Assembly: GCA_002698985.1 (NCBI GenBank) | Contig: PAAY01000019.1 | Coordinates: 1-64,000 of the forward strand | Source of the DNA: Saprospirales bacterium | GTDB taxonomy: Bacteria > Bacteroidota > Bacteroidia > Chitinophagales > Saprospiraceae | Direction of reading: 5' to 3' | DNA: 64,000 bases | In this document: piece by piece, positions 42,124-62,744 of the stretch | Layout of the letters: the number at the start of each line of letters is the position of its first letter | How positions within the stretch are numbered: position 1 is the first letter of the stretch | Program-made: the position numbers and the translations under genes | The notes under the pieces: generated by a model | Seen by the model: only the letters and a program-made list of their open reading frames with translations | What the model was told of the DNA's origin: nothing | Databases searched by the model: none

Positions 42124-42156
42124 ACACACAGCCATTTACACCCCAATCAATGATTC

Positions 42157-43129: not shown

Positions 43130-46100
43130 ATGAATCAAGTTTTCAAAAAGGTGCTTGATCGCCTTTTCTCAATGTCGGCTGCTGGCCTTTACATGATCAT
43201 TTTTGCGGCAGCAATCGGCATTGCCACTTTCATCGAAAATGACTTTGGAACCAGTGCGGCACAAAAGCTCGTATTTCAGGCCAGATGGTTTGAAGTCCTG
43301 CTGGTTATGTTCTCCATTTCGCTCATCGTGAACATCATACGTTTCAGGATGATCCAGCAAAAGAAATGGGCTATTCTCGCTTTCCACCTGTCCATGGTGA
43401 TTATTATCGCCGGTGCAGGGATAACCAGGTATTTTGGTTACGAGGGCATGATGCACATACGGGAAGGGGATGTTTCCAACAGCTTTTTATCCCGGGAAGG
43501 CTACCTTCTTTTCGACGCAAAAAAAGGTGACCAACAATACGTTTTTGATGAACCGGTTCTCTTTGCATCAGTAGGTAATAATTCTTTCAAAAAATCCTAC
43601 TTGCTGGGAGGAGAGGAGGTTGGAATTGAAGTAGTGGATTTCATGCCCAACCCAAAAGAAAGCATGGTTGATGATGAGAACGGTTTGCCAACGATAAAGA
43701 TAGTGATGGGTGGTGCCAACGGCAGGGAGGAATACTACCTCCAACAAGGCGCCAGAAAATCAATCAGAGGAACCAGGTTTAATTTCTCCAACGCTCCCCT
43801 ACCCGGTGCGGTGAACATTGCATACCGAAACGACAGTTTGTACTTTTTGGCTCATGAGCCCTTCGACGTAACGGTGATGGCCACTCAGGAAAAGTTCCAA
43901 TTGGCACCGGGACAGTGGCATCCGCTGAGGCTGCGCAGCCTCCATGCCAGCGCAAACAGCAGCTTTGTTTTTGGCCTTTTCTCTCCTCATGCAAGGGTTG
44001 AAATTATCTCCGAATCACCCAAAATGAGCAGTACGAGCCTTGGTGGTGTAAACTTGAAAATAACTGCCGGTGGCCAGGAAGAAACAGTCATGGTTGTTGG
44101 CAGCCCGGGAATCGAAGGGAGACCCAGACCCGTTCAGGTTGGCAATTTCACTTTCAATGTTGCCTATGGCTCAAAGCGAAAAGTGCTCCCATTTGCCATC
44201 AAACTGAACGATTTTATTCTGGAAAAATACCCCGGCACCAACAGTGCCTCATCTTACGCCAGCGAAGTTACCCTGATCGACCAGGGAAAAAACGTAAACA
44301 TGGACTACCGAATATTTATGAATAATATCCTGAATTATGGAGGCTATCGCTTTTTCCAATCCTCCTTTGACCAGGATGAGCTCGGCACTTACCTGAGTGT
44401 CAATTACGACGCTCCAGGCACCTTCGTCACTTACCTGGGCTATGCAATACTTACCCTGGGTATGTTGCTCACCTTTTTCGATAAAAAAAGCCGCTTCCAG
44501 CAACTAAACCGCAACATTTCGAGAATCAGACAATCAAGAAAAGCAGCGTTTTCAGCAATAGCACTTGCGCTTTTTGCCTTTACCGCAAGCCCGGTTCACG
44601 CAGACAGTCCTCCCATTGAACCATCCGTAAAAGTGATTGACCTGGCGCACGCCAAAACCTTTGGGAAACTCATCGTGCAGGATCATCGCGGGCGGTTTAA
44701 ACCGATGAATACGCACACCAGCGAGATTATCAGGAAATTATCCAAAAAGGAAAACTGGTTCGGAATGAACCCTGACCAGATCGTGCTTTCCATGGTCGTC
44801 AATCCGGAGGACTGGTACCATGTGCCCATGATCAAACTGGGACATCACGAAGAGGTGCGGAAAATACTCGGCGTTGACGGCGATTACTGCGCCTACAGCG
44901 ATATTTTTGACAACAATGGTCAATACAAACTGAGACAATACATTCGTCAGGCTTACAACACTCCTCAAAGAGACCGGGGAGTTTTTGAGAAAGAAATCAT
45001 CAAATTGGATGAGAAGGTAAACATTTGCTCCATGGTCTTCAGCGGTGATTTCATGAAGGTATTTCCGCTTCATGGTGATGAAAACCACACCTGGGTTTCG
45101 CCTTCCCACCTACCTGAATCCAATGGAGATGATGCCATGCTTGCCAAATTTTTCCCGGCCTATGTTGGCTCCATTGCAGAATCCTTGAATTCCGGAAACT
45201 GGGAATTGCCCAACAAGCTCATTGAAGAATTAAGAAATTACCAAAAAAAGGTATCGGCCGAAGTATTGCCATCCGAAAGCCAGCTTAGCACCGAACTGTG
45301 GCTGAATAAAATGCGGCCTTTTTCAAGGCTCACTGGGATATATGCCATTCTGGGACTTTTGTTTGTAGGCTTGCTATTCACCTCGGTATTTAAGCCCGGT
45401 ATCGATTTGAAGTGGCCCGTCAGAATAGCCTTCGGACTCTTCGTCGCTGCATTCCTTGTGCACTTGATCGGACTCGGAATGAGGTGGTACGTGTCAGGCA
45501 GAGCCCCATGGAGCAATGGCTATGAATCCATGATCTACATTGCCTTCACCACCACACTGGCCGGGATGATATTCTCGAGAAAATCCCTGGGCGGCCTGGC
45601 TGCCACCAACATTCTGGCGGCAACAGCGCTGATGGTGGCCAGCCTCAGCTTCCTGGATCCGGAAATTACCCCCCTCGTTCCAGTATTGAAATCCTATTGG
45701 CTCACCATTCACGTTTCACTTGAAGCAGGTAGCTATGGCTTCCTGATGTTGGGTGCTTTGATCGGAGTGCTCAATCTCATATTCATGATTCTGGCCACTA
45801 AGAAGAATGGTGAGAAGGTCTATAAAATGATCCGTGAAATGACCTACATCAGTGAAATGACACTGATTGCCGGTTTGGTCATGATAAGTGTGGGAACCTA
45901 TCTCGGTGGAGTTTGGGCCAATGAATCATGGGGACGCTACTGGGGCTGGGACCCCAAAGAAACCTGGGCCCTGGTAACCATTCTTGTGTACGCTTTTATC
46001 TTGCACATGCGGTTCATCCCGGGCTTCCGAGGGCTTTATGCCTTCAACGTTTCCACACTTTTTGGATGGGCCTCGGTAATCATGACTTACTTTGGGGTTA

Positions 46101-46252
46101 ATTATTACCTGTCAGGGCTTCACTCCTATGCAGCCGGAGACCCGATGCCTGTACCACCTGCCATTAAAATATCGGTAATTATTCTCACCCTAATCAGCTT
46201 GCTAGCATTGTGGCGCTATAAAGCCATTAAAAAGGCGGGAATAAAGGCCTAA
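43130..46252 (+). CDS. ccsBA: Fused cytochrome c synthase CcsBA (System II)
   Basis: The 1040-residue protein joins ResB/CcsB (N-terminal helices, large periplasmic part, about 1-480) to CcsA (C-terminal helices, about 770-1040). The heme-handling WWD motif is RYWGWDPKETWALV (936-949), with flanking His in TIHVSLE and LHMRFIPGF. A single fused CcsBA exports heme and attaches it to CxxCH. Between the halves lies a periplasmic segment beginning with a second signal-like helix (AIALALFAFTASPVHA). It stands beside the multiheme cluster, which would need high heme-attachment capacity; System I genes are also present at 12.4-15.7 kb. Confidence 0.93.
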   Translation: MNQVFKKVLDRLFSMSAAGLYMIIFAAAIGIATFIENDFGTSAAQKLVFQARWFEVLLVMFSISLIVNIIRFRMIQQKKWAILAFHLSMVIIIAGAGITRYFGYEGMMHIREGDVSNSFLSREGYLLFDAKKGDQQYVFDEPVLFASVGNNSFKKSYLLGGEEVGIEVVDFMPNPKESMVDDENGLPTIKIVMGGANGREEYYLQQGARKSIRGTRFNFSNAPLPGAVNIAYRNDSLYFLAHEPFDVTVMATQEKFQLAPGQWHPLRLRSLHASANSSFVFGLFSPHARVEIISESPKMSSTSLGGVNLKITAGGQEETVMVVGSPGIEGRPRPVQVGNFTFNVAYGSKRKVLPFAIKLNDFILEKYPGTNSASSYASEVTLIDQGKNVNMDYRIFMNNILNYGGYRFFQSSFDQDELGTYLSVNYDAPGTFVTYLGYAILTLGMLLTFFDKKSRFQQLNRNISRIRQSRKAAFSAIALALFAFTASPVHADSPPIEPSVKVIDLAHAKTFGKLIVQDHRGRFKPMNTHTSEIIRKLSKKENWFGMNPDQIVLSMVVNPEDWYHVPMIKLGHHEEVRKILGVDGDYCAYSDIFDNNGQYKLRQYIRQAYNTPQRDRGVFEKEIIKLDEKVNICSMVFSGDFMKVFPLHGDENHTWVSPSHLPESNGDDAMLAKFFPAYVGSIAESLNSGNWELPNKLIEELRNYQKKVSAEVLPSESQLSTELWLNKMRPFSRLTGIYAILGLLFVGLLFTSVFKPGIDLKWPVRIAFGLFVAAFLVHLIGLGMRWYVSGRAPWSNGYESMIYIAFTTTLAGMIFSRKSLGGLAATNILAATALMVASLSFLDPEITPLVPVLKSYWLTIHVSLEAGSYGFLMLGALIGVLNLIFMILATKKNGEKVYKMIREMTYISEMTLIAGLVMISVGTYLGGVWANESWGRYWGWDPKETWALVTILVYAFILHMRFIPGFRGLYAFNVSTLFGWASVIMTYFGVNYYLSGLHSYAAGDPMPVPPAIKISVIILTLISLLALWRYKAIKKAGIKA

Positions 46253-46341: not shown

Positions 46342-47097
46342 TTATTTTTTCACTACTGCCCCTTCGAGAATTATATCGTAACGATAACCTGCACCGAAAT
46401 CTTTGTTCAATGCAATGGTGCCTTCAAATGAGACCACATGCCCAAGGGGAATATTTTCCATGGTGGTAACCGTAAGGTCTTTGCCTTCGACTGTTCCATC
46501 CTGAATGTGTATCCAGTTGCGCCCCATGATCATAGGATTCACTTTGACCACTTTTCCGGTAACCACGATTTGCTTCCCATTGTACTTAGACATGTTCTCA
46601 AACAGCTCCGACAAGGGTACCGATCCTTCCGGCCTTGTGATCTGATTGGGATCGACTTTCAAAACATCGCCCGATTGCAATGCAGAAAGAACATCTTCAG
46701 CCTGGTTAGTTCCGCCCATTGGCCTGAAATCGCTGACCAGGTAAAGCGTTTCAAAAACCCGGTTAAACTCTGGGCTGAAAAAGTTCTTTTTCATCAAGCC
46801 TTTTTGAAAAACATATTTCTTGCCTACCTCCACCGGCTGTTTGGATATGGCCACCCAGTATTCCTCGTCACCTTCTGCAACGCGGACGTAGGTATATCTC
46901 TCCGAATCAAAAGTTTCCTTGGCCTCTACCTGGTGCAAAACCGATTGTGAAGCTTCACTCAAAGCTGAAAACTCGGAGGAGGGTGAGGAACTTGATTCTG
47001 ATGAACCGGAACTAACGCTTTTAACTTCTGTTGGACCAGTGTCGCAAGATGCACACAAGGCAATGATAACTCCGAAAAGGATAGTTTTATCTGTCAT
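46342..47097 (-). CDS. OB-fold lipoprotein of unknown function
   Basis: The 251-residue protein has a lipoprotein signal (ILFGVIIALCASC), a Ser-rich linker (SGSSESSSSPSSEFSALSEA) and two OB-like beta regions: TYVRVAEGDEEYWVAISKQPVEVGKKY at about 70-100 and KQIVVTGKVVKVNPMIMGRNWIHIQDGT at about 175-205. Similar GW-containing OB-fold proteins are found near cytochrome genes; the role is unknown. It is the last gene of the long leftward block and converges on ccsBA. Confidence 0.7.
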   Translation of the reverse strand: MTDKTILFGVIIALCASCDTGPTEVKSVSSGSSESSSSPSSEFSALSEASQSVLHQVEAKETFDSERYTYVRVAEGDEEYWVAISKQPVEVGKKYVFQKGLMKKNFFSPEFNRVFETLYLVSDFRPMGGTNQAEDVLSALQSGDVLKVDPNQITRPEGSVPLSELFENMSKYNGKQIVVTGKVVKVNPMIMGRNWIHIQDGTVEGKDLTVTTMENIPLGHVVSFEGTIALNKDFGAGYRYDIILEGAVVKK

Positions 47098-47269: not shown

Positions 47270-48877
47270 TCAAAAGCGCTGAATGATTTTGGAATTAAAC
47301 CTGTTCAGCTGCCTTCCCTGATCATCAAAAGTGCCTTCGTAATAGAAGTACAAAGATAGCTTTTTCAGCAGCCTTATGTTGAGACTGGCACCAGCTATGT
47401 TTTGGCGGAAAGTATAGCCCCCGGTAACATAAGTGTATTGAACGAAATCGTAATGCATCTCTCCGCTCAATTTGCCCCGGATAATGTCCTTGCTCAGCCG
47501 TGCACCGAAACGCTGACTTTGCAGGTAATTCGTCTCCAATAAGTTTGCCCGAAGGGTGAAGCGAACATTCAGCACCGGAATGCGATTGAAGTTGACATAC
47601 CCATTGACGTTTTTTGAAAGGTTCATATCGCTCTTCTGAAAACGCCAGCTGCCGTTTACTCCGACACTGATCAATCTTACAGGCCTCACCGAAACTCCCA
47701 GCCGCATTCCTTGCCGGGTTTCATTTTCTATCAACTGATCGATGAAATTCTTATAGGATTCGTAATAGATGATGTTGTTGCGATTGTCATAAGAGGCCGT
47801 AAGGCTGAATTTCCGTGAAAAGCGATACCTGGCGGAAACGTAAAGGTTGGTCAACCTGGGCTTGTTGGATACTTCACCGTTTACCTTTTGATAGGCATCC
47901 ACTTCAAAAGATCCGAATAAATTCAGGTTTTCAACTGGAGAACTCGAATGCTGGAAATAAGCAAAACGTCTGTCTACGGCACTGCCATTATGCTGTTCCA
48001 CAAAGGCAAGGGTTGAATACCCACTGTTCTCTTTGGCCTGAAGGCTGATAAATGCCCCGGCTTGCAAAAGATTAGCGTTGAAACTGTAGTCGGAATAGTC
48101 TGGTCTTGCTCCTGCTATGGCACCCAACACAAACTGACCGAATCTATGCTCATACTGCAAGCCATCGATGGCGCCCATACTGGATATTTTGTAGTTGATG
48201 CTGCGGCCAACGGTTATCGAGGAATTATCAAAATCATACTTCCCAGCCAATGAGTACACTTTGAGTGCGTTGAATATATTATCCTGCACTTCTGACCATT
48301 CATCGAGCGTATGTCTGAAGGTGATATAATTATCGACGGAAAAACGGGAGCCATTCAAGTTCGTCCCCCTGAAGTTGAAGGCATAGCGCATTCTGTGATT
48401 GTCGCCGTAGTCAGAAGTCGTGCTGTAAGAGCCGGCAGAAATACGTCCCTTGATCCTTTGTTTGAATTGTGGTTCTCCGGCTGTTTCTTCTTCTGAAAAT
48501 GAAGGTTCGATCTCCGCAGTAGAAGTAGGCTCGTCGGTCTGACGTGCAGGGTCAACTGCCTCCTCTTTTTTCTCTTCCACGAGCATTCTTTTACGGGCAT
48601 AAACAACTTGCTTCACTTCCATCTGAACTCCTTCAAGGGGTGTACAGACTACTGATGAAGAGGATTTATTGACAACCAGTAAGGCGGGTGTAAAAAGTTC
48701 ATTTTCCCGGACATAGAGGGTATCCCCGGACGCTATCTCTTCGGTACTTTCAAATTTTACGTACACATTTCTTGAAGACAGGAATGAGACCGAGCCAGCA
48801 TTCCAATCAGCTTCAACCTGGCTCATTGCAGGCAAAAGAATACTCATCCACAGGAGTGCAGAAAAAAGATATCTCAT
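47270..48877 (-). CDS. Outer-membrane beta-barrel beside the giant cytochrome
   Basis: The 535-residue protein has a signal peptide (MRYLFSALLWMSILLPAMSQ), an N-terminal soluble beta region (about 20-95), an acidic low-complexity linker (about 100-150, EEKKEEAVDPARQTDEPTS-like) and then about 380 residues of alternating strands typical of a 16-strand-like barrel (for example RISAGSYSTTSDYGDNHRMRYAF in two strands; NAGSV; RYRFSRKFSLTASYDNRNN). It ends in an aromatic strand, SKIIQRF. It starts 21 bases after the 91-heme gene, so the two proteins are very likely made together; a porin-type partner of the cytochrome is inferred, not shown. No close family name is visible to me. Confidence 0.72.
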   Translation of the reverse strand: MRYLFSALLWMSILLPAMSQVEADWNAGSVSFLSSRNVYVKFESTEEIASGDTLYVRENELFTPALLVVNKSSSSVVCTPLEGVQMEVKQVVYARKRMLVEEKKEEAVDPARQTDEPTSTAEIEPSFSEEETAGEPQFKQRIKGRISAGSYSTTSDYGDNHRMRYAFNFRGTNLNGSRFSVDNYITFRHTLDEWSEVQDNIFNALKVYSLAGKYDFDNSSITVGRSINYKISSMGAIDGLQYEHRFGQFVLGAIAGARPDYSDYSFNANLLQAGAFISLQAKENSGYSTLAFVEQHNGSAVDRRFAYFQHSSSPVENLNLFGSFEVDAYQKVNGEVSNKPRLTNLYVSARYRFSRKFSLTASYDNRNNIIYYESYKNFIDQLIENETRQGMRLGVSVRPVRLISVGVNGSWRFQKSDMNLSKNVNGYVNFNRIPVLNVRFTLRANLLETNYLQSQRFGARLSKDIIRGKLSGEMHYDFVQYTYVTGGYTFRQNIAGASLNIRLLKKLSLYFYYEGTFDDQGRQLNRFNSKIIQRF

Positions 48878-48897: not shown

Positions 48898-51800
48898 TTA
48901 CTCCTCTCCATCCGGGTGGCAAGCATAGCATGCCGGACTGGAGTACTGGTAACCCGAAACACCTTGATGTTCATCAGCAAGTTCTACAGGGTCGTCGTGT
49001 TCGTGGCAATCAATGCAGCTGAACGAGGAATAATTCCCTCCGATATGGCATTCAACACATTGGTTCCATTCGCCTTCGTGTTTTCCGGAAAAGATCGGGA
49101 AGTACTGGTTGTCATGATCCCAGGTGGAGGGTGTCCAGGCATTTTCTGTATGGCAGGTCTGACAGTCAGTCGGGAAGCCTGCAGATGAGTGGTTGGGATT
49201 GTTTGCGTTGTTGTATTCCGATGAATGGCAGCCATAGCAAGTATTGGGCGTGTTGTTGTAATTGCCGTTGTGGCAAGCTGCACAGTCGTTGGCAATGGCT
49301 GCGTGAGCACCATTCAATTGCCAGTAATTATTATGGATGGGGAAAGTAGCCGGCATCCAATCCGGATCCGTGGTATGGCACATGGCGCAATCCGTCGGGA
49401 TATTCAATGAGGGGTGGTTCGGATTGGTGGATGTGTTGTACTCCGGCATGTGGCAGCCTTCGCAAGTATTTGGCGTGTTGTTGTAATTGCCCTGGTGGCA
49501 GGCATTACAGTCATTTTGAATGGGAATATGCGCCCCGGTAAACGGCCAGAACGAGTGCGTGAATGTACTCGGTATCCAGGCGTTCTCCGTGTGGCAGTCT
49601 TCACAATCAGTCGGGAACTGATTGGCAGCGTGGTTCGGGTTCGTTGCCATGTTGTAGTCATCAGCATGGCAGCCATAGCAAGTATTGGGTGTGTTATTGT
49701 AGTTGCCGTTGTGGCAGGCTGCGCAGTCGTTCTGGATGGCTGCATGAGCGCCATTCAACACCCAGAATTGGTTGTGAATGGGGAAGGTAGCAGGCATCCA
49801 TCCAGGATCAGTGGTATGGCACATGTCGCAATCAACCGGCAAGCTCAAAGCCACGTGGTTCGGGTTTGAGGTCGTGTTGTAATCGTCTATATGGCAGCCG
49901 TCGCAGGTGTTGGGGGTGTTGTTGTAATTGCCGTTGTGGCAGGTAGCACAGTCATTGGCAATGGGCAGGTGTGCACCATCGATTACCCAATAGTTGTTGT
50001 GGATGGGGAACTCAGCCGGCGCCCATCCCGGATCTGTGGTATGGCATTCGTCGCAATTCGTCGGAATTCCCAGGTTCACGTGGTTCGGGTTGGTGCTCTG
50101 GTTGTAGTCGTCCATGTGGCAGCCGTCGCAGGTGTTCGTCGTGTTGTTGTAATTGCCGTTGTGGCAGGCTGCACAATCGTTGGCAATGTCAGCATGTGCG
50201 CCATCCAGTACCCAGTAGTTGTTGTGAATGGGGAATTCAGCCGGCGCCCACCCTGGTTCCGTGGTATGGCATTCGTCGCAATTCGTCGGAATGGCCAGGT
50301 TCACGTGGTTCGGGTTGGTGCTCTGGTTATAGTCGTCCATGTGGCAGCCATCGCAGGTGTTCGGCGTGTTGTTGTAGTTGCCGTTGTGACAGGCCGCACA
50401 ATCGTTGGCAATGTCAGCATGTGCACCATCCAATACCCAGTAGTTGTTGTGGTTCGGGAATGAAGCCGGTGCCCAGCCAGGCTCAGTGGTATGGCATTCG
50501 TCGCAATTCGTCGGCAATGACAAGTTGATGTGGTTCGGATTACTTGTCTGGTTGTAATCATCAATGTGGCAGCCGTCACAGGTGTTCGGCGTGTTGTTGT
50601 AATTGCCGTTGTGGCAGGCCGCACAATCGTTGGCAATATCAGCATGAGCCCCATCTAATACCCAGTAGTTGTTGTGTACCGGGAACAGAGCCGGAGCCCA
50701 GCCCGGCTCTGTGGTATGGCATGTTTCACAATCAGTTGACAAGCTCAGATTTGGGTGGTTCGGGTTCGTAGTTTGGTCATAGTCATCCTGGTGGCAACCG
50801 TCGCAGGTGCTGGGGGTGTTGTTGTAATTGCCCTGGTGGCAGGCGTTGCAATCAGTTTCAACAGCCAGGTGAGCACCCGTTATCGGCCAGAATTGATCGT
50901 GGTCGAAAGTTGACGGTGTCCATGCGCTTTGAGAGTGGCATTGCTCACAGTCCGTCGGGAAATTGGCCGCCACGTGATCGGGGTTGGTGGTAGCCGTGTA
51001 ATCATCGTTATGACAGCCGTTGCAGGTATTCGGCGTGTTGTTGTAATTGCCGTTGTGGCAAGCCACACAATCATCTGCAATGGCGATGTGTGCACCCTGG
51101 AATGCCCAGTACTGACTGTGGTCAAATGTCGAGGGTGTCCATTCCGACTCAGTATGACATTCCTGACAATCGGTCGGGAACTGATTTGCCACGTGGTCAG
51201 GATTGGTGGTGGCATTGAAATCATCATCATGGCAGCCATAGCAGGTATTCGGGGTGTTGTTGTAATTGCCGTTGTGGCAGGCCGCACAGTCATTGGCAAT
51301 GTCGGCATGCGCCCCGTTTAAGACGTAGAAATCATCGTGAATCGGGAAAGTGGCTGGTGCCCATCCGGGTTCGGTGGTATGGCATTCGTCGCAATTGGTA
51401 GGCAAGCTCAGTGCGGTGTGGCTGGGGTTGCTGCTATTGTCGTAATCCTCCTGGTGGCAACCGTCGCAGGTGTTGGGAGTATTGTTGTAGTTGCCGTTGT
51501 GACAGGCTACACAATCTTCTGCAATGGGGATGTGCGCACCCGTAAAGGCAAAGTATTGACTGTGGTCAAAAGATGATGGCGACCAGCCGTTTTCATCGTG
51601 GCAAAGCGTGCAATCCGTCGGATACTGGTTAGCACTGTGGTTCGGGCTGGTCGTCGCAGCGTAGTCATCATCGTGGCAGCCGTAGCAATCATTCGGCGTG
51701 CTGTTGTAATTGCCGTTGTGACAGGCTGCACAATCGTTTGAAATATCTGCGTGAGCCCCCAGCAAAGGCCAGAAATCATCGTGGATTTCAAAAGTGGCCG

Positions 51801-54800
51801 GTGCCCATCCAGGTTCGGTGGTATGACATTCGTCGCAATTGGTCGGCAAGCTCAGCGCGGTGTGGCTGGGGTTGCTGCTGTTGTCGTAATCCTCCTGGTG
51901 GCAACCGTCACAGGTATTTGGCGTGTTGTTGTAATTGCCGTTGTGACAGGCTGCGCAATCATTGGCGATATCGAGGTGCGCTCCATCGATTACCCAGAAA
52001 TCATCGTGCATGGCAAAAGTAGCCGGTGCCCAACCTGGTTCCGTTGTATGGCATTCATCACAGGTCATGGGCAAGCCAAGCGCCACGTGATCCGGGTTGC
52101 TGGTGTTGTTAAACTGCGTCTCGTGACAAGCTGAGCACTCTGACGGAGTACCGGCAAAGCCATTCGCATGACAATCGAGGCATTCAAGTGGAATGTGAGC
52201 GCCCGTCAGCGGGAAGCCGGTGTTGTCGTGGTTGAAATTATCGTCGGCAGAACCCGTTGGGTGGCAGGCAAAACAAGCTGAACTGTTATATACATAGCCG
52301 GTTACACCCTGGTGCTCATTATCAGTTTCCGGGTTGGTGTGGCACACCGTGCAGCTGAACTCAGCATAGTTGTTCGGATTGGTATGGCAATCTATGCACT
52401 CACTCCACTCACCTTCGTGTTTTCCACTGTAAATCGGGAAGTACTGCGCATCATGATCAAAGGTGGAGGGTACCCATGCATCTTCGTTGTGACAGGTAGT
52501 ACAATCTGTTGAAAACTGAGCCTGGCTGTGATTGGGATCAGTGGTGCCATTGTAATCATTCTCGTGGCAGCCAAAGCACTCATTGGGAGTGTTGTTGTAG
52601 TTGCCATTGTGGCAAGCTGCACAGTCGTTGGCTATATTGGCATGTGCGCCGTTCAATACGTAGAAATCATCGTGAATGTCAAAGGTTGCCGGAGCCCAGC
52701 CAGGCTCGGTGGTGTGACACTCGTCGCAATTTGTCGGCAGGTTCAGTGCCGTGTGGCTTGGGTTGCTACTGTTGTCGTAGTCGGTCTGGTGGCAGCCATC
52801 GCAGGTGTTGGGGGTGTTGCTGTAATCGCCATTGTGACAGGCAACACAATCGTCGGCAATGGCAACGTGTGCCCCGGTGAACGGGAAGTAATCATCGTGG
52901 TTGAAACTGGAAGGGCTCCAGGCCTGGGCATCGTGACAGGTGGCACAGTCCATTGGGAATTGCGCCGTGGCGTGATCCGGATTGGTCGCTGCATTGTAAT
53001 CGCTCTCGTGGCAGCCAAAGCAGTCATTGGGCGTATTGTTGTAATCGCCGTTGTGACAAGCCGCACAGTCATTGGCGATGGAAGCATGGGAGCCTTCGAG
53101 AACGAAAAAGTCGTCGTGGATGGCAAAAGTTGCCGGTGCCCAGCCAGGTTCAGTTGTGTGGCAGCCTGCACAATCCGTATCCAGCGACAGTGCATTGTGG
53201 TCGGGATTGGAAGTGCCATTGTAATCACTCAGGTGGCAGGATTCACAGGCTGTTGGCGTGCCCGCATAACCCGCACTGTGGCAATCGAGGCAGACCAGCG
53301 CCAGGTGTGCTCCTGTGAGCGGGAAATCCGTGTTGTTGTGATCGAAAACATTGTCGGCATCACCCGTGGGGTGACAAGCCAGACAGGCAGAGCTCTCGTA
53401 AACATACCCCCCCACTCCATTGTGTTGGTCATCCGTTTCGGGATTGGTGTGGCAACTGGTACAGGTTACCTCAGCGTAATTATTCAGGTTGGTATGGCAA
53501 TCCATGCACTCATTCCACTCACCGGCATGGGCGCCACTGTATATGGGGAAATATTGGGCGTCGTGGTCAAAAGTTGATGGAACCCATTGAGTCTCCGTAT
53601 GGCACTGGGCGCAATCCTGTGCGAACATCAAATTGACGTGGTTGGGGTCCGTGGTTCCTTCATAATCTGCCTGGTGACAGCCAAAACACTCATTGGGCGT
53701 GTTGTTGTAATCGCCGTTGTGACAGGCAGCACAATCATTGGCAATGGTGGCGTGCGCGCCGTTCAGTGCATAATAGTCGTCGTGTATGGCGAAGGCAGCC
53801 GGTGCCCAGCCCGGTTCTGTGGTATGACAGGTTGCACAATCCGTTGGCAATCCCAAAGCAACGTGATTAGGATTGGCGGTCTGGTTGAAATCTGTCAGGT
53901 GGCAGGCGTCGCAATTGGTAGGGGTTCCTGCATAGCCGCTGCTGTGGCAAGACGTACACTCAGTGGCAATGTGTGCCCCGGTCAATGGAAATGCTGTGCT
54001 GTTGTGGTCAAACACCAGATCTGCATCGCCGGTGGGGTGGCAGGCCAGGCAGGCTGAATTTTCGAAGACATAACCGTTAACGCCCTGGTGCTCGTTGCTC
54101 GTACCGGGATCGGTATGGCATACGATACAACTGAATTCAGCAAAATTGTTCGGGTTGGTGTGGCAGTCAATACATTCGTTCCATTCTCCTTCGTGCTTAC
54201 CACTGTAAATCGGGAAATATTGACCATCATGGTCGAAATCAGCAGGTACCCATTCCGACTCTGAGTGGCACTGAGCACAATCGGTAGAGAATTGCGCAGC
54301 GACGTGGTTGGGTTCAGTAGCGTTTGTGTAATCATCGTGGTGACAGCCGAAACAGTCGTTCGGCGTATTGTTGTAATCACCATTGTGACAGGTTACACAA
54401 TCATTGGCAATGATAGCGTGAGCCCCGTTGAGCGCATAATAATCATTGTGGATATCAAAGCTGGCAGGTGCCCAACCTGGTTCCGTGGTGTGACAGGATG
54501 CACAATCCGTACTCAAGCCCAGGTCATTGTGATTGGGATTGATGGTCTGGTTGAAATCCGTCAGGTGACAGGCATCGCAATTCATCGGCGTGCCTTCGTA
54601 GCCATCACTGTGGCAAGCAATACAACTCGTTGTCGTGTGAGCTCCAGTTAGCGGAAAATTGGTGCTGTTGTGATCAAAAACATCGTTTACATCACCGGTG
54701 GGGTGACAAGCCAGACAGGCGGAATTTTCATAAACGTAGCCATTCACGAGGTTGTGCGCATCGTCCGTTTCCGGATTGGTATGGCATATCGTACAACTGA

Positions 54801-55803
54801 ATTCTGAAAAGTCGGAACTGTTGGTGTGACAGGAGGCGCAATCATCCCAGGTGCCGGCATGGGCTCCGGAGTATATTGGGAAGAGCTCTCCATCGTGGGC
54901 CAGGAACTGCGCAGGTGCCCAACCTGGATCGATGGTATGACAAGAAGCACAATCGTGCTCAAACCCTGCTGCCTGGTGATCGGGAGCTTTGGTATCTTCG
55001 AAATTCTGCTGGTGGCAGGCGAAACAATCAGTCGGAGTCATTGAAAAATCACCACCCGTGTGGCAGGCTGCACAGTCATTGATCTCGTGCCCCTTTTCCA
55101 GCGGAAAGAAACTGTGATCTACAACATCGGTACCCCAATCCGGGTCGTCGATGCTGTGGCATTCAATACAATTCGATGAGAAGCCGGCGTCTTTGTGGTT
55201 AGGGTTGGTGGTGTTGTCAAAATCATTCTGGTGGCAGGAAATGCAATCATTGCCGATACGGTCAAATCGAAGGGCAGTTTCTGAAGTATGACATTCGTTG
55301 CAACTCACCGCAGCGTGTCCGCCAAGCAAGGGAAAACCATTCTCTTCGTGCAAATCAGTGATGTTGTCCACCAGCCAGTTGTTGGTGCTGTGGCAGCGGG
55401 TGCAATCGTTGCCGACGGTATTTTGGTGTACATCCGTGTGGCAGGAATTACAGTTGGTTTGGGCTTCTTCAAAAACGAGGCTGGCATGGCAGTCCCGGCA
55501 ATCAAGCATTGCATGCTGGCCGGTGAGGGGAAAATCCGTGCGGTTGTGATGAAAATAGCTGGTGTCGAAAGGAAGGCGCAATCCCGTGGTGTGGCTGATG
55601 GTATCTGTCCGGGCATCCAGTTGCTGCCAATGTGAAAATGGAATCTCCCAGCCTTCGGAATTGTGGCAGGCGGCACAGTTGATCTTCATTTGCTCCCCAT
55701 GCGGATTCTGGGCAACCACAGTTGCCGACAGCAAAAGAAACAGCATGAAGAGTAGATGTCTGTGCAAAATGCTCTGACTTTTTTGAAAAACTAAAACAAA
55801 CAC
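48898..55803 (-). CDS. Giant multiheme cytochrome c with about 91 CxxCH motifs
   Basis: The protein of up to 2,301 residues has a signal peptide ending VVAQ and, by hand count, 91 CxxCH heme-binding motifs and no other domain. The first ten motifs align with the start of the 13-heme neighbour, and the last three (FSGKHEGEW, then CVECH, CIDCH, CYACH) with its end. Between them are repeats of about 75 residues with three hemes, for example CDECHTTEPGW, DGAHADIANDCAACHNGNY and NTCDGCHMDDYN with NPNH. Each unit also has three extra His, enough for bis-His ligation. No lipobox or T9SS C-terminal domain is visible. GTG at 55803, TTG at 55767 or ATG at 55746 may be the start; the TTG gives a signal peptide most like the neighbour's. 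Confidence 0.92.
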   Translation of the reverse strand: MFVLVFQKSQSILHRHLLFMLFLLLSATVVAQNPHGEQMKINCAACHNSEGWEIPFSHWQQLDARTDTISHTTGLRLPFDTSYFHHNRTDFPLTGQHAMLDCRDCHASLVFEEAQTNCNSCHTDVHQNTVGNDCTRCHSTNNWLVDNITDLHEENGFPLLGGHAAVSCNECHTSETALRFDRIGNDCISCHQNDFDNTTNPNHKDAGFSSNCIECHSIDDPDWGTDVVDHSFFPLEKGHEINDCAACHTGGDFSMTPTDCFACHQQNFEDTKAPDHQAAGFEHDCASCHTIDPGWAPAQFLAHDGELFPIYSGAHAGTWDDCASCHTNSSDFSEFSCTICHTNPETDDAHNLVNGYVYENSACLACHPTGDVNDVFDHNSTNFPLTGAHTTTSCIACHSDGYEGTPMNCDACHLTDFNQTINPNHNDLGLSTDCASCHTTEPGWAPASFDIHNDYYALNGAHAIIANDCVTCHNGDYNNTPNDCFGCHHDDYTNATEPNHVAAQFSTDCAQCHSESEWVPADFDHDGQYFPIYSGKHEGEWNECIDCHTNPNNFAEFSCIVCHTDPGTSNEHQGVNGYVFENSACLACHPTGDADLVFDHNSTAFPLTGAHIATECTSCHSSGYAGTPTNCDACHLTDFNQTANPNHVALGLPTDCATCHTTEPGWAPAAFAIHDDYYALNGAHATIANDCAACHNGDYNNTPNECFGCHQADYEGTTDPNHVNLMFAQDCAQCHTETQWVPSTFDHDAQYFPIYSGAHAGEWNECMDCHTNLNNYAEVTCTSCHTNPETDDQHNGVGGYVYESSACLACHPTGDADNVFDHNNTDFPLTGAHLALVCLDCHSAGYAGTPTACESCHLSDYNGTSNPDHNALSLDTDCAGCHTTEPGWAPATFAIHDDFFVLEGSHASIANDCAACHNGDYNNTPNDCFGCHESDYNAATNPDHATAQFPMDCATCHDAQAWSPSSFNHDDYFPFTGAHVAIADDCVACHNGDYSNTPNTCDGCHQTDYDNSSNPSHTALNLPTNCDECHTTEPGWAPATFDIHDDFYVLNGAHANIANDCAACHNGNYNNTPNECFGCHENDYNGTTDPNHSQAQFSTDCTTCHNEDAWVPSTFDHDAQYFPIYSGKHEGEWSECIDCHTNPNNYAEFSCTVCHTNPETDNEHQGVTGYVYNSSACFACHPTGSADDNFNHDNTGFPLTGAHIPLECLDCHANGFAGTPSECSACHETQFNNTSNPDHVALGLPMTCDECHTTEPGWAPATFAMHDDFWVIDGAHLDIANDCAACHNGNYNNTPNTCDGCHQEDYDNSSNPSHTALSLPTNCDECHTTEPGWAPATFEIHDDFWPLLGAHADISNDCAACHNGNYNSTPNDCYGCHDDDYAATTSPNHSANQYPTDCTLCHDENGWSPSSFDHSQYFAFTGAHIPIAEDCVACHNGNYNNTPNTCDGCHQEDYDNSSNPSHTALSLPTNCDECHTTEPGWAPATFPIHDDFYVLNGAHADIANDCAACHNGNYNNTPNTCYGCHDDDFNATTNPDHVANQFPTDCQECHTESEWTPSTFDHSQYWAFQGAHIAIADDCVACHNGNYNNTPNTCNGCHNDDYTATTNPDHVAANFPTDCEQCHSQSAWTPSTFDHDQFWPITGAHLAVETDCNACHQGNYNNTPSTCDGCHQDDYDQTTNPNHPNLSLSTDCETCHTTEPGWAPALFPVHNNYWVLDGAHADIANDCAACHNGNYNNTPNTCDGCHIDDYNQTSNPNHINLSLPTNCDECHTTEPGWAPASFPNHNNYWVLDGAHADIANDCAACHNGNYNNTPNTCDGCHMDDYNQSTNPNHVNLAIPTNCDECHTTEPGWAPAEFPIHNNYWVLDGAHADIANDCAACHNGNYNNTTNTCDGCHMDDYNQSTNPNHVNLGIPTNCDECHTTDPGWAPAEFPIHNNYWVIDGAHLPIANDCATCHNGNYNNTPNTCDGCHIDDYNTTSNPNHVALSLPVDCDMCHTTDPGWMPATFPIHNQFWVLNGAHAAIQNDCAACHNGNYNNTPNTCYGCHADDYNMATNPNHAANQFPTDCEDCHTENAWIPSTFTHSFWPFTGAHIPIQNDCNACHQGNYNNTPNTCEGCHMPEYNTSTNPNHPSLNIPTDCAMCHTTDPDWMPATFPIHNNYWQLNGAHAAIANDCAACHNGNYNNTPNTCYGCHSSEYNNANNPNHSSAGFPTDCQTCHTENAWTPSTWDHDNQYFPIFSGKHEGEWNQCVECHIGGNYSSFSCIDCHEHDDPVELADEHQGVSGYQYSSPACYACHPDGEE
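49840..50760 (-). repeat. 225-bp coding tandem repeats within the giant cytochrome gene
   Basis: Successive units of 225 bases (75 codons, three CxxCH) are nearly identical at DNA level here; for example the stretches starting at 50074 and 50299 differ at only about six of their first 90 bases. Units elsewhere in the gene have diverged more. Confidence 0.85.
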
Positions 55804-55923: not shown

Positions 55924-57006
55924 TTACTCCTCTCCCTTCGGGTGGCACTGGTAACATGCCTGGCTGTTGTACTGATAGCCGCCAACATCATCGTGTTTGT
56001 CTGCCAGTTTACTGGGATTGTTGTGCTCATGACAATCGATGCAACTGAACTGTTTGAAATCACCAGCTACGGTATGGCACTCGATGCAATCATTCCACTC
56101 GCCTTTGTGCTTGCCACTGAATATTGGAAAATACAAATCATCGTGCTGAGCGAAATCTTGAGCCGGCCAGCCCGGCTCGATGGCGTGGCAAACCGAACAA
56201 TCTGTCGGAAAACCATTGGCCTGGTGATTGGGCGATGTTGTAGCCAGGTAATCCTCTTCATGGCAGGCAAAGCAATCCGTCGGTGTACCCGAAAAAGTCC
56301 CGTTGGAGTGGCAGGCATTGCAATCCTGAATTTCATGCCCACCCGTCAGCGGGAAGAAATTGTGATTGGCAGTGCCGGAAGTCCAAAACCACCCTTCCGC
56401 AGCTACATCGTGACAGTCCATGCAATTGGTGCTGTAACCTGCTGCCTGGTGATCGGGCGAAGTTGTTGCCTGAAAATCTTCCAGGTGGCAGTTGATGCAG
56501 TCGTTCCCTATTCTGTCAAACCGAACCGCAGATTCTGAAGTATGACATTCGTTGCAACTCGCCGTTGCGTGTTGCCCAAGTAATGGAAAACCATTTTCAA
56601 AGTGTAGCTCATCGATGTTGTCCACCAGCCAGTTTTCAGTGGAATGGCAGCGGGTACAGTCATTGCCGACGGTCATCTGGTGCATGTCCGTGTGGCAAGA
56701 GATACAACTCGCCTCGGCTTCTTCGAACACCAGATTGTCATGGCATTCTCGGCAATCGAGATTGGCGTGCTGCCCTGTCAGTGGAAAATTGGTCTCATTG
56801 TGACTGAAGCCTTTCTCATTCCCTGTTTTCGTCGGAATGACCAGCTCTCCCGCGTTCCATGCCGATGAGGCAATGGCCCAACCCTCCGGCGAGTGGCAGG
56901 AAGCACAATCGATGGTCAGCTTTTCCCCGTGAGGATTTTGCGAAGCGACAAACCCATGAAAAAAGCAAACCAAAGCGGCGACAGCAAGAATATTCGGTAG
57001 TTTCAT
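55924..57006 (-). CDS. Multiheme cytochrome c with 13 CxxCH motifs
   Basis: The 360-residue protein has a signal peptide (MKLPNILAVAALVCFFHGFVAS) followed by QNPHGEKLTIDCASCH, and 13 CxxCH motifs. It resembles the cytochrome c3/doubled-CxxCH families. Motifs 1-10 and 11-13 match the two ends of the giant cytochrome, including FPLLGQHATASCNECH, RFDRIGNDCINCH, FPIFSGKHKGEW and a C-terminus CYQCHPKGEE. It is probably the unexpanded paralog. The start at 57006 gives the clean signal peptide. It lies between the 23-heme and 91-heme genes, all leftward. Confidence 0.9.
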   Translation of the reverse strand: MKLPNILAVAALVCFFHGFVASQNPHGEKLTIDCASCHSPEGWAIASSAWNAGELVIPTKTGNEKGFSHNETNFPLTGQHANLDCRECHDNLVFEEAEASCISCHTDMHQMTVGNDCTRCHSTENWLVDNIDELHFENGFPLLGQHATASCNECHTSESAVRFDRIGNDCINCHLEDFQATTSPDHQAAGYSTNCMDCHDVAAEGWFWTSGTANHNFFPLTGGHEIQDCNACHSNGTFSGTPTDCFACHEEDYLATTSPNHQANGFPTDCSVCHAIEPGWPAQDFAQHDDLYFPIFSGKHKGEWNDCIECHTVAGDFKQFSCIDCHEHNNPSKLADKHDDVGGYQYNSQACYQCHPKGEE

Positions 57007-57057
57007 ATTGACTGAGCTTACGGTGCTTGGCTGTGCCACAGTTGCTTCGGCGAAAAA

Positions 57058-58938
57058 TTAATCGCCATGACAATCGATGCATTCAAACTTCCTGATCTTG
57101 TATTCAACCCTTAGTTCGCCATCGATCAATTTCTCTTTATGGCATTCAGCACAGTCTACATCCGCGTGTTTCCCTTCCAGCGGGAACTTCGTTTTGCTAT
57201 GGTCGAACTGGCTGCTGTCCCAAGCCTCAAAACCGTGGCACCGGACACAATCCGTGATGCCTTGTTGCTCAAACTGGCTGCCGTGCACGTTGTCATGGCA
57301 GGCTGAACACGCCACTTCCATGTTGCGGAAGCGACCATGAGGAGTCGGCTCCTCTTTCAGGTGGCACTCACTGCAATTTGTTCGGGCATGTGCTCCCTCA
57401 AGGGCGAAGTCCGTCTGGGCATGGTCAAAGGTCAGTTCTTTGGTCCAGCTATCTGTGTTGTGGCAATTCTGGCATTGCTTGTCAGGATACCACCGGGTAT
57501 CCAGTTCACCTTCGTGAACATCCTCGTGGCAGTCAATGCAATTGGTTCCCAAATTCACAAACGACCACTCTTCTGTGTCAGATAAGTGGCAGGCAATACA
57601 AGGGGTCGCCATGTGCGCACCCTCCAATGGGAAATCAGTTGCAGCGTGCTGTTCAAACTCAAAAGTGCTGGGACTGAATCCATCCACCGTGTGGCATTCG
57701 GAGCAGTCTCTTATTTTGTTTCCTTCGGTAAATGCCCCTTCGTGGTAATCCTCGTGACAGTCGGTGCACTTGGCAAATGGCAAAGGATCCGTGTAGTGCC
57801 CGGAAGTGTGGCATTTTGCGCAATCAACTGCAATGTGCTTTCCCTCAAGAGGAAAATCCGTCATGGAGTGGTCGAACTTGTCCGGATCACCGGAGAACCT
57901 GAAACTCTTTTCATTGTGGCATTCAGCGCAGTTGTTGCCAAAACGCCCCTCGTGCACATCTTCGTGGCATTTTGCACATTCGGAAGTTCCTATACCCAAC
58001 TGATCCTGAAATACGGTGGTGGCAGAAACATAGGTCTCATGGCACTTGAAACAATCCACCTGCTGGTGCTTGCCTTTGAGCGGAAAGCCAGTTGAGTTAT
58101 GGTTGAAACGCCTCAAACCCGACAACACATCCCAGCCTGCTTCGGTGTGGCACTGTTTGCAATTATTTCCCAAATTGCCCTGGTGGGCATCGTCGTGGCA
58201 AGAGTTGCAATTGGTGAAGGCCACATTGGCAAAGTGTTGAAACTCCTCACCATTTCGGATTTCTTTTTTATGACATTCGGCACAATCCACATCGATGTGC
58301 TTTCCTTTTAATGCAAAGTCTGTATCGTCATGGTCAAATTTTGTTGCCGGGGCGAAAGCCTCTGTGGTGTGGCAACTGGCACAATCCGTTCCGAGCGTTT
58401 TCTGGTGGTAATCGTCGTGGCAGTCCAGACAATCAGTGCCCATACCCAGCCAGGTATCTTTCCGCTTTCTGATTTCCCGGTCGGCTATATTGTCGGGCTT
58501 GTGGCATTCACGGCAGTCGGTCTCTTTGTGGGCACCGGTCAGCTCAAAGCCCGTGAGATCGTGATCAAATTTATCTTCGTCAAAATGCAGCATGTCGAAC
58601 TTGCGACCGTGGTGATCACTGTGGCAATCGAAACATTCCTTGTTGCGCACCTCCCTCGATGCATGATACCCCCGCCGGGCATCCACCAGCGCTTTGATCT
58701 CTTTGTGGCAATCCAGACACTTCTGGCTGGACACCTTGTCACCCAGGGAGTGACATTGCGTGCAATTGGACAGGCCCTCCAGGTGAGCGTGTGGCTGCGC
58801 CAAATCTCCCGGTGACAACTGCCCCACTGACCTGCCAATGAGCAGCACATTCAAAACGAGGAATGCACAAACCCATTTTAGAAAAGGTTTGTGCAATCGT
58901 TGACTGCTGTATGGTCTGTTCGATTCTGATACATCCAT
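57058..58938 (-). CDS. Multiheme cytochrome c with 23 CxxCH motifs
   Basis: The 626-residue protein has an N-terminal hydrophobic signal or anchor (WVCAFLVLNVLLIGRSVG, about 22-39) and 23 CxxCH motifs by hand count. Repeated modules such as FDHDDTDFALKGKHIDVDCAECH and FNHNSTGFPLKGKHQQVDC, each broken here for brevity, recur about seven times and alternate with CHEDVHEG or CHDDAHQG segments. It is distinct from the 13- and 91-heme pair but shares the F-x-L-x-GxH grammar. It probably stands between a membrane electron donor and the larger cytochromes. Confidence 0.9.
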   Translation of the reverse strand: MDVSESNRPYSSQRLHKPFLKWVCAFLVLNVLLIGRSVGQLSPGDLAQPHAHLEGLSNCTQCHSLGDKVSSQKCLDCHKEIKALVDARRGYHASREVRNKECFDCHSDHHGRKFDMLHFDEDKFDHDLTGFELTGAHKETDCRECHKPDNIADREIRKRKDTWLGMGTDCLDCHDDYHQKTLGTDCASCHTTEAFAPATKFDHDDTDFALKGKHIDVDCAECHKKEIRNGEEFQHFANVAFTNCNSCHDDAHQGNLGNNCKQCHTEAGWDVLSGLRRFNHNSTGFPLKGKHQQVDCFKCHETYVSATTVFQDQLGIGTSECAKCHEDVHEGRFGNNCAECHNEKSFRFSGDPDKFDHSMTDFPLEGKHIAVDCAKCHTSGHYTDPLPFAKCTDCHEDYHEGAFTEGNKIRDCSECHTVDGFSPSTFEFEQHAATDFPLEGAHMATPCIACHLSDTEEWSFVNLGTNCIDCHEDVHEGELDTRWYPDKQCQNCHNTDSWTKELTFDHAQTDFALEGAHARTNCSECHLKEEPTPHGRFRNMEVACSACHDNVHGSQFEQQGITDCVRCHGFEAWDSSQFDHSKTKFPLEGKHADVDCAECHKEKLIDGELRVEYKIRKFECIDCHGD

Positions 58939-59112: not shown

Positions 59113-60441
59113 TTAACTGGCGTGTTTCCTGACAGTGTACGCGAACCGTTTTGTGATTTCCACCCCTACTTTCTTCAGGAATTGCGTTGGCAATTCACCT
59201 CCGGCAAAAATGTAAACCAAATCGTTTTCGATGGTTTTGGTCATGTCATCGCCAATTTTCATGATGACCTTGTCCTCCTGAATTTCCAGCAAATTTGAGT
59301 TGAAGATCACCTGCAATTTCTGTTCTTCCATGGCCCTGGTGATATTTTCCCTGTTTTTCACTTTCAGGCGGCTGAACGCATCGCGGCGGTAGGAAAGTAT
59401 CACCTGGTTTTGCTCGCAGAGCAACAATGCTGATTCAATGGCTGAATCGCCTCCCCCCACAACGACCACCTTCTTTCCGACAATTCTTTCCGGTTCCAAC
59501 AAGCGATAAGCCACTTTCTGCATCTCCTCACCGGGAATGCCCAGCTTCCTGGGTGTTCCCCTCCGGCCGATGGCCAGCAATACCGTTTGCGTGAGGTATT
59601 CCTTACCAGTGTTGGTGAACACCCTGAAATAACTCCCTTCCGGCTGGATGCTTTCCACTTTAGTATGTTCCGTAATGCTGATGTTGTTTTTGGTAAGTGC
59701 ATCCTGCCAGATGCTCAGCAGTTCATCCTTGCTGGTATCGTACAATTTTACTTTTCCGTACAGTGGCAGGTGCATGGGGGCTGTCATCACGATTTTTGCC
59801 CTCGGAAAATTGAAAACCGTTCCACCCACCGAATCCTGCTCGAGGGTAATGAAATTCAAGCCGTGCTGTTTGGCTGTCAGAGAGGCAGAAATACCTGCAG
59901 GACCAGCTCCTATGATCAATACATCATAAACATTTTCAACACTTTTGAGCCCCAGTTTTGCAATGTTCTCCATGGCCATCTGGCCTTGTTCCACGCAATT
60001 CTTGATCAGGCCCATTCCACCCAGCTCACCGGCTATGTAAATACCTTCCACATTGGACTCGTAGTTCTCATTGACGTGCGGAAGCTCCACACCTCTTTGT
60101 TCTGTCCCAATGACCAGTGAAATGGCCTCAACAGGGCAGGCGTGAAAACAGGCACCATGCCCCACGCAGTTGGAAGCATTGATGAGTGTGCCCCCCCCGT
60201 TCAGGATGCCGAGAATATCCTTTTCAGGGCAAGCCTCGACACAGGCACCAGACTTGATACAGGTATTCAGATCGATGCGGGGGTGAAGGGAGACGGGCTC
60301 AAAGAGACCTTCTTCTTTCGCCTTTTGGATCTTGGCTTCAACTATTTTCGAAGCTTTTTTCTCGCTTCGTAAATAGAGGTAGATGACCAGGCCGCACAAT
60401 AAAATTGCGGCACCATAAATTAACACTTGTTCGAGCAACAT
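59113..60441 (-). CDS. Membrane-anchored Fe-S and FAD/NAD(P) oxidoreductase
   Basis: The 442-residue protein has one N-terminal membrane helix (about 7-24), a ferredoxin-like region with two motifs, CIKSGACVEACP (61-72) and CVGHGACFHACP (92-103), and a thioredoxin-reductase-like flavoprotein domain with GAGPAG (178-183) and GGGDSA near residue 325. Both iron-sulfur motifs lack the usual second Cys (Ser64 and His95 instead). There is no CxxC redox pair, so it is not a thioredoxin reductase. It would move electrons between NAD(P)H and a membrane or cytochrome partner. Its stop codon lies in the flank of the MITE-like element. Confidence 0.85.
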   Translation of the reverse strand: MLLEQVLIYGAAILLCGLVIYLYLRSEKKASKIVEAKIQKAKEEGLFEPVSLHPRIDLNTCIKSGACVEACPEKDILGILNGGGTLINASNCVGHGACFHACPVEAISLVIGTEQRGVELPHVNENYESNVEGIYIAGELGGMGLIKNCVEQGQMAMENIAKLGLKSVENVYDVLIIGAGPAGISASLTAKQHGLNFITLEQDSVGGTVFNFPRAKIVMTAPMHLPLYGKVKLYDTSKDELLSIWQDALTKNNISITEHTKVESIQPEGSYFRVFTNTGKEYLTQTVLLAIGRRGTPRKLGIPGEEMQKVAYRLLEPERIVGKKVVVVGGGDSAIESALLLCEQNQVILSYRRDAFSRLKVKNRENITRAMEEQKLQVIFNSNLLEIQEDKVIMKIGDDMTKTIENDLVYIFAGGELPTQFLKKVGVEITKRFAYTVRKHAS

Positions 60442-61755: not shown

Positions 61756-62214
61756 TCAATCACTATCCTTCAAAAACACCGGCTCTCTGTAAGCATGGTT
61801 GAGCATGTCGTAGGTGCTCACAATGCCCACCAGTTTTCCTTCGTCATCAACCACTGGAATTGCGTGAAACAGATTCTCCCGGAAAAATCCCGCCGCCACC
61901 ATTATGGTGTCATCGGGGTGTAGTTTGGCAACCTGCTTTGTCATGACTTCCTTTACGAGAAGTGAACGTAAAATGGCTTTGTTGAACTCTTCACTCTTTT
62001 CTGTGCGGAACAAGGTGAACCCATGCAGGATTTTAAAATAATCCGTTTTGCTGACCATTCCGACCACTACCCCCTCCCGGTTCAGCACCGGCAAGTGATG
62101 TATGTTGTTGGTCCGGAATATTTCGTCCACCTTGCTCATGGTGTCATCAGGACGGACGAAAATCACATTCGTCGTCATGATTTGACCAACTTTGGTTGTG
62201 GGATCGATCATCAT
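61756..62214 (-). CDS. Tandem CBS domain protein
   Basis: The 152-residue protein is a pair of CBS domains: VGQIMTTNVIFVRPDDTMSKVDEIF with HHLPVLNREGVVVGMVSKTD, and VKEVMTKQVAKLHPDDTIMVAAGFF with HAIPVVDDEGKLVGIVSTYD. CBS pairs sense adenosine ligands. Its neighbour is a paralog 25 bases away, so they are one transcript. Stand-alone CBS proteins of this kind are often part of anaerobic regulons. Confidence 0.9.
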   Translation of the reverse strand: MMIDPTTKVGQIMTTNVIFVRPDDTMSKVDEIFRTNNIHHLPVLNREGVVVGMVSKTDYFKILHGFTLFRTEKSEEFNKAILRSLLVKEVMTKQVAKLHPDDTIMVAAGFFRENLFHAIPVVDDEGKLVGIVSTYDMLNHAYREPVFLKDSD

Positions 62215-62239
62215 GGTCTCAGTATTTTAAGATTAAAAT

Positions 62240-62683: not shown

Positions 62684-62714
62684 CTTTTGGTGGTTTTTGT
62701 GAGAAGTTGTATCC

Positions 62715-62722: not shown

Positions 62723-62744
62723 CCTGCTCGCCCGATGCTGGCCG

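What the first reader, a model, noticed from the sequence alone, without database searches (positions are those of the whole stretch)
48898..55803. A single gene encoding about 91 c-type hemes
Reading the translation by hand I count 91 CxxCH motifs in about 2,300 residues, one per 25 residues, with no other domain. Most characterised multiheme cytochromes carry 4 to a few tens of hemes. This protein would be among the largest heme arrays and may form a very long electron path.
Basis: partly seen in the sequence, partly recalled or inferred. Interest (0 to 1): 0.95.

Follow-up and report, generated by a model that had tools for sequence, protein, structure and literature searches.

The report
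Giant heme wire built in threes
A bacterium of the Saprospiraceae group has a gene for one protein with 91 heme-binding sites, and its relatives have versions with 10 to 94 sites that nearly always differ by whole three-heme blocks, which suggests that evolution sets the length of a biological electric wire block by block.

Summary
It lies in a locus of six genes, five of which recur in relatives: b-type inner-membrane protein, Fe-S flavoprotein, 23-heme cytochrome, (13-heme paralogue), 91-heme protein, outer-membrane barrel. The inner-membrane protein carries the motifs published for the 'PCC3' porin-cytochrome complex, so I read this as a PCC3-like extracellular electron conduit in Bacteroidota. 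Size alone is not new: 85, 86 and 112 motifs are in print, and a 2024 survey points to Saprospiraceae. What I did not find in print is the rule behind the size: a 10-heme cap plus 27 three-heme units (the last is the end cap). Of 87 complete relatives (10 to 94 motifs) 84 have 3k+1 motifs; the other three show a CX3CH variant, a missing cap heme or masked bases. The barrel core stays at 531-548 aa. The nearest relative differs by one 225-bp module, with dN 0.057 against dS 1.41. Structure prediction of the array failed; wire length, conduction and location are inferred.

The parts
48898..55803 (-). E protein, 91 CxxCH, 2301 aa: 10-heme N-terminal cap, 26 triheme modules, 3-heme end cap; start codon unsettled
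54907..55803 (-). signal peptide-like start and 10-heme N-terminal cap (residues 1-299)
   Evidence: heme spacing 59-16-16-34-19-25-32-16-25, kept in relatives
49126..54906 (-). 26 triheme modules of 72-75 aa (residues 300-2226); modules 1, 4, 7 and 12 resemble the end cap
   Evidence: 25 of 26 modules have exactly 3 non-motif His, one has 4
50017..50691 (-). near-identical modules 20-22, the run in which L007 has one module (225 bp) more
48901..49125 (-). 3-heme end cap (residues 2227-2301)
55924..57039 (-). E paralogue with 13 CxxCH: the two caps with nothing between; probable ATG at 57006
57058..58938 (-). P protein, 23 CxxCH, 626 aa, presumed periplasmic cytochrome
   Evidence: P has 23 motifs in 55, 20 in 7, 10 in 1 of 63 distinct cases
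59113..60441 (-). membrane-anchored Fe-S flavoprotein (Fer4 plus pyridine nucleotide-disulphide oxidoreductase)
60605..61474 (-). inner-membrane protein, 289 aa from its probable ATG, two WX3HX13H and SGVVG
   Evidence: weak DUF4405 match below cut-off
47270..48877 (-). outer-membrane beta-barrel, 535 aa, about 22 barrel strands after a small N-terminal beta domain
   Evidence: AlphaFold pLDDT 78.2; Foldseek matches are outer-membrane barrels
46342..47097 (-). 251-aa protein with a lipobox-like start (read by eye), function unknown, found beside the barrel in relatives
43130..46252 (+). ResB/CcsB fusion, cytochrome c maturation; present in 48 of 101 stretches examined

Best explanation
The 91-heme protein is the variable-length outer cytochrome (E) of a PCC3-like porin-cytochrome complex in a Saprospiraceae bacterium. 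Electrons would pass between the quinone pool or NAD(P)H and the b-type inner-membrane protein, then the 23-heme cytochrome (P), then through the outer-membrane barrel to the array, which contacts an outside partner (mineral, humic matter or another cell); direction not known. The array consists of triheme modules with bis-histidine hemes between fixed caps. Recombination or slippage between modules adds or removes whole modules, so the count moves in steps of three while the other parts stay the same. Shown: motif count, module structure, step rule, one single-module difference, selection, recurring gene set, predicted barrel, inner-membrane motifs. Inferred: heme occupancy, order and direction of electron flow, outside location, wire shape and length.
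For: Module anatomy: in 84 proteins 927 of 928 modules have three or more non-motif His, 815 exactly three. Step rule: 69 of 71 and 15 of 16 complete E proteins, 84 of 87 together. Single 225-bp module difference from L007, dN 0.057, dS 1.41, 273 of 273 heme-attaching residues kept. Inner-membrane protein: all 78 distinct closed copies have two HX13H and SGxxG, 65 of 78 two WX3HX13H, as described for PCC3/PCC4 (PMC5566968). Barrel predicted, core 531-548 aa in 53 loci while the largest complete E has 13 to 94 motifs. All three partner genes occur in 70 of 131 stretches, many of which are cut by contig ends.
Against: No known export route is visible: no T9SS tail in the protein although 150 are listed elsewhere in the genome, no secretin match in the draft genome, and no lipobox-like pattern in 70 of 71 E proteins. 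AlphaFold failed on the array (pLDDT 43). No sequence match to any solved structure for E, P or the barrel. The barrel's Foldseek TM-scores are low (0.21-0.42 by query in the 50 rows shown), so they support the barrel class only. Homology to named PCC3 proteins was not tested.
Confidence: 0.68

Rival explanations
1. Periplasmic electron store. The array stays inside the outer membrane and acts as a capacitor holding up to about 91 electrons per molecule; module number sets capacity rather than reach.
For: No visible export route for E. Monomeric Geobacter 'nanowires of hemes' such as GSU1996 are periplasmic and discussed as capacitors (PMC10138318, passages); PMC11495043 offers the same idea for the Saprospiraceae proteins (passages).
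Against: The barrel gene sits directly after E and its core is constant, which fits a trans-outer-membrane complex. A fully stretched 91-heme chain would exceed the periplasm (inference).
Confidence: 0.22
2. Assembly artefact: repeat units were multiplied when reads were joined.
For: Draft genome of 102 contigs; tandem repeats in the gene; in many relatives the contig ends inside the array.
Against: Longest exact repeat 35 bp, no 41-mer repeated. L007, a separate record, has the same module order with one more. Five single-contig genomes carry 22, 28, 34, 37 and 43-motif versions.
Confidence: 0.03
3. Heme or iron reserve: the protein mainly stores heme or metal and electron transfer is incidental.
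For: Very high heme content; 13-heme and 91-heme versions stand side by side.
Against: One distal histidine per heme in nearly every module and a recurring redox gene set point to electron transfer.
Confidence: 0.04

Closest known systems
PCC3 porin-cytochrome clusters (PMC5566968, PMC10734462; passages read)
   Same: Barrel, large outer cytochrome, periplasmic cytochrome near 21 hemes, about 300-aa inner-membrane protein with two WX3HX13H and SGXXG; repeats in the cytochromes; about 26 aa per heme.
   Different: Described in Proteobacteria; no step of three in the outer cytochrome of Gallionellaceae; here a Fe-S flavoprotein joins the locus and the barrel has about 22 strands against up to 42 transmembrane regions reported for PCC3. 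Sequence homology not tested.
Giant secreted cytochromes of Saprospiraceae in activated sludge (PMC11495043; passages read)
   Same: Same group of bacteria, very many motifs (>100 in some Bacteroidota).
   Different: Called undescribed there; the passages seen give no gene context, modules or step rule. I could not check identity with the present family (supplements not readable).
GSU1996 and GSU2210, 'nanowires of hemes' of Geobacter (PMC10138318; passages read)
   Same: Chain of triheme domains in one polypeptide (GSU1996: 4 domains, 12 hemes); NCBIfam model TIGR04257 nanowire_3heme matches E above cut-off (44.9 against 40 bits).
   Different: Periplasmic, 12 or 27 hemes. The order of heme spacings here (15-25-35) differs from that of cytochrome c7 as I recall it, so the module fold is open.
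MtrC/OmcA outer-membrane cytochromes
   Same: Pfam PF22113 (MtrC-MtrF domains II/IV) matches E with 127 bits (cut-off 30), best stretch residues 167-330.
   Different: MtrC is a decaheme (PMC10734462); here 91 motifs, and the barrel gives no MtrB-type Pfam match.
Giant S-layer cytochromes of ANME archaea (PMC9012536; passages read)
   Same: Up to 86 motifs in one chain, thought to carry electrons across the outermost layer.
   Different: The best-conserved types carry S-layer or other domains; none is found here.

Membership tests
PCC3 | Inner-membrane protein of about 300 aa, five TM helices, WX3HX13H on TM3 and TM5, SGXXG on TM4 | tested here: met
   289 aa; motifs at 91, 257 and 131 of the ATG-started protein; hydropathy fits five TM segments though some overlap
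PCC3 | Outer-membrane beta-barrel porin gene in the cluster | tested here: met
   AlphaFold pLDDT 78.2, about 22 barrel strands; Foldseek matches are outer-membrane barrels
PCC3 | Periplasmic multiheme cytochrome (median 21 motifs) | tested here: met
   23 motifs, 57058-58938; the location itself was not tested
PCC3 | Large multiheme cytochrome outside the cell | tested here: inconclusive
   The large cytochrome is there; its location is unproven and no export signal was found
PCC3 | Sequence homology to named PCC3 proteins | not tested
   No named PCC3 protein was fetched
MtrCAB / MtoAB / PioAB | MtrB/PioB-type porin | tested here: not met
   No Pfam match for the barrel here at E 0.001; in 16 barrels at E 0.01 only OMP_b-brl_3 and LRR_5, each in 1 of 16
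MtrCAB / MtoAB / PioAB | Cytochrome with MtrC/MtrF-type domain | tested here: met
   PF22113, 127.2 bits against a cut-off of 30; other multiheme models match too, so this is weak evidence
Geobacter-type chain of triheme domains (TIGR04257) | Match to the triheme domain model | tested here: met
   44.9 bits, cut-off 40, but no single stretch passes alone
Geobacter-type chain of triheme domains (TIGR04257) | Solved c7-like fold | tested here: inconclusive
   AlphaFold failed, pLDDT 43; no PDB match by sequence
ANME S-layer MHC | S-layer domain | tested here: not met
   None among Pfam or NCBIfam matches

The most novel reading that the evidence does not exclude
The E protein is an evolvable molecular ruler: one covalent conductor whose reach is set by the number of three-heme blocks, tuned from 10 to 94 hemes while the inner-membrane, periplasmic and barrel parts stay fixed, and brought across the outer membrane by a route that is neither T9SS nor T2SS, perhaps through its own barrel.
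Probability: 0.3. Interest if true: 0.88.

Novelty: new variant of a known kind. Interest (0 to 1): 0.66.

Why it matters
Cytochrome wires are usually compared across unrelated proteins, so length cannot be varied alone. Here one gene set with near-constant partners offers a natural series from 10 to 94 hemes in steps of three, including single-contig genomes at 22 to 43. That would allow a direct test of how conduction, electron storage and fitness depend on wire length, and it extends a PCC3-like pathway to the Saprospiraceae, which the sludge survey PMC11495043 found rich in such proteins.

Tried and rejected
Assembly artefact: tested by exact-repeat length and by relatives, disfavoured. 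Structure of the array: a first alignment of 49 eight-module segments slipped by whole modules (1235 columns for 591 aa) and was dropped; a second with 14 of 15 six-module segments (L009 dropped as misaligned) gave pLDDT 43, so no fold or length is claimed. Solved structures by sequence: nothing for E (E up to 0.001), P (0.01) or the barrel (1); for the inner-membrane protein 27 unrelated-looking hits at E 0.02-0.73. MtrB-type porin: no support. Polymeric filaments of the OmcS/E/Z type were considered from memory only, not tested. A tie to the neighbouring cbb3 and nos genes: cbb3 was found near the locus only in the window and nosZ in the window and L115, of 101 stretches, most too short to reach that far; no conclusion.

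Full report
OBSERVATION. The frame 48898-55803 on the minus strand is 2301 aa and holds 91 CxxCH. All 182 cysteines are in motifs and 99 of 190 histidines are outside them. Shuffled residues give 1.16 motifs on average and at most 7 in 2000 trials. Pfam and NCBIfam find multiheme cytochrome families and one likely cysteine artefact. The two genes upstream carry 13 and 23 motifs.

ANATOMY. After ten hemes spaced 59-16-16-34-19-25-32-16-25, triplets follow at 31-37, 14-15 and 25-29 residues to the end. I divided the chain into a 10-heme cap, 26 modules of 72-75 aa and a 3-heme end cap. Of the 26 modules 25 have exactly three histidines outside motifs and one has four, which fits one distal ligand per heme. 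Modules 1, 4, 7 and 12 resemble the end cap. The 13-heme neighbour has both caps and nothing between.

LOCUS. On the minus strand, in order of transcription: inner-membrane protein, Fe-S flavoprotein, 23-heme P, 13-heme E, 91-heme E, barrel, and a 251-aa protein with a lipobox-like start. A ResB/CcsB fusion, which I recall as the heme-attachment machine of system II, faces them and was found in 48 of 101 stretches. The inner-membrane protein has WX3HX13H twice and SGVVG, placed as TM3, TM5 and TM4 of a five-TM protein, the marks given for PCC3 and PCC4 in PMC5566968 (passages). The barrel model has pLDDT 78; I count about 22 barrel strands after a small N-terminal domain. Its 50 listed Foldseek matches are outer-membrane barrels, with low TM-scores.

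RELATIVES. A scan of genome contigs gave 20 loci in Saprospiraceae, other Bacteroidota and Calditrichota. L007 lies on a contig of the same length as G061:C121, and G061 is in the window's genus, which is why I call the window's owner a Saprospiraceae bacterium. In the window's family 101 of 398 genomes match E at 1e-60 or better. With the barrel as query 12 of 14 genomes of the genus and 28 of 395 of the phylum match, the window's own included. Of 131 stretches examined 88 hold the inner-membrane protein, 91 the flavoprotein, 106 the barrel and 70 all three; many are cut by contig ends and some are duplicates. All 78 distinct closed inner-membrane proteins have two HX13H and SGxxG; 65 have two WX3HX13H.

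STEPS OF THREE. In the first set 86 closed E-type frames gave 76 distinct ones; 5 lacking an end signature were set aside (13, 13, 18, 39, 16; the last three look like interrupted genes). Of the remaining 71, 69 have 3k+1 motifs. A second, phylum-wide set gave 15 of 16. Set aside there, for lack of the end signature: with the start signature 34, 31, 43, 31, 37, 37 and 10, which fit, and 38 (L158), which does not; with neither signature 10, 14, 9 and 9. Together 84 of 87 fit, with 26 different fitting values between 10 and 94; only 52, 55 and 79 are missing from the series. The three that do not fit are L165 (18, plus one CX3CH), L017 (29, plus one CX3CH, and one heme missing from the first cap) and L128 (20, masked bases). 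On a tree of P with 50 loci the count changes 35 times by parsimony and one tip is off the step (another tree). That number is inflated, because a few loci are labelled by a small E while a larger one is cut off by the contig end (L083, L092, L129). The proteins are related, so I give no probability. P has 23 motifs in 55, 20 in 7 and 10 in 1 of 63 distinct closed cases of the first set, and mostly 20 in the second. The barrel core is 531-548 aa in 53 loci while the largest complete E has 13 to 94 motifs (Spearman 0.24, p 0.085; at L132 a larger E is cut off).

ONE STEP CAUGHT. Against L007 (94 motifs) the modules match in order, except in the near-identical run 20-22, where the best partner is ambiguous. 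The only internal gap is 75 residues, 225 bp, in that run. Protein identity is 90%, DNA identity 83%; dN is 0.057 and dS 1.41 (near saturation, so rough). All 273 heme-attaching Cys and His are kept although 75 of these codons differ silently, 98 of 99 other His are kept, and other sites are 88% identical. So every module, not only some, appears to be under selection to bind heme.

ARTEFACT. The longest exact repeat in the gene is 35 bp and no 41-mer occurs twice. Five relatives on single-contig genomes carry 22, 43, 34, 28 and 37 motifs. The window's genome is a draft of 102 contigs, which leaves a small doubt about the exact 91.

MECHANISM. Best reading: a PCC3-like conduit whose outer wire is lengthened or shortened by whole modules. 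Shown: anatomy, step rule, conservation, gene set. Inferred: heme occupancy, electron path, direction and place. Against the outside location: no T9SS tail in the protein although 150 matches are listed in the genome; no secretin match in the 95.5% complete draft; no lipobox-like pattern in 70 of 71 E proteins. A periplasmic store is the main rival. If hemes lie 0.8-1.2 nm apart, as I recall for other multiheme wires, 91 of them would reach roughly 70-110 nm; the structure prediction of the array failed, so this is an estimate from memory and not a result.

WHAT IS KNOWN. [quoted passage not shown] In Gallionellaceae PCC3 the outer cytochrome has 10-16, 17, 18, 26, 28, 29, 33 or 35 motifs, with no step of three, and the periplasmic one 21, 24 or 27 (PMC10734462). 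I found no account of this gene set in Bacteroidota or of the step rule in the searches or in the passages read; supplements could not be read and most subscription papers are not held.

VERDICT.

Noticed in passing
window 32228-38369 (minus): Clade II type (Sec-dependent) nosZ with NosL, NosD and ABC transporter genes, next to the heme locus.
   Followed up: partly
window 26856-31836 (minus): cbb3 oxidase: CcoNO fusion, FixP-like subunit and a FixG-like Fe-S protein.
   Followed up: partly
window 39098-42984 (plus): Rrf2 regulator followed by three universal stress protein genes between the nos genes and the CcsB/ResB fusion.
   Followed up: no
window 61756-62752 (minus): Two CBS-domain proteins directly upstream of the inner-membrane protein gene.
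   Followed up: no
window 12440-15259 (minus): A second cytochrome c assembly protein (CcmF-like), in addition to the CcsB/ResB fusion.
   Followed up: no
L017 and L165, end cap of E: The one CxxCH that departs in each array is a CX3CH in the end cap, which may be a real heme-site variant.
   Followed up: partly
window 55803; same frame in L007 and L059: No ATG lies in a suitable place for the large E gene in any of the three, which suggests an unusual start codon.
   Followed up: partly
G000:C100:31078-31347: A further Cytochrome_C7-like match (504-aa frame) elsewhere in the window's genome.
   Followed up: no
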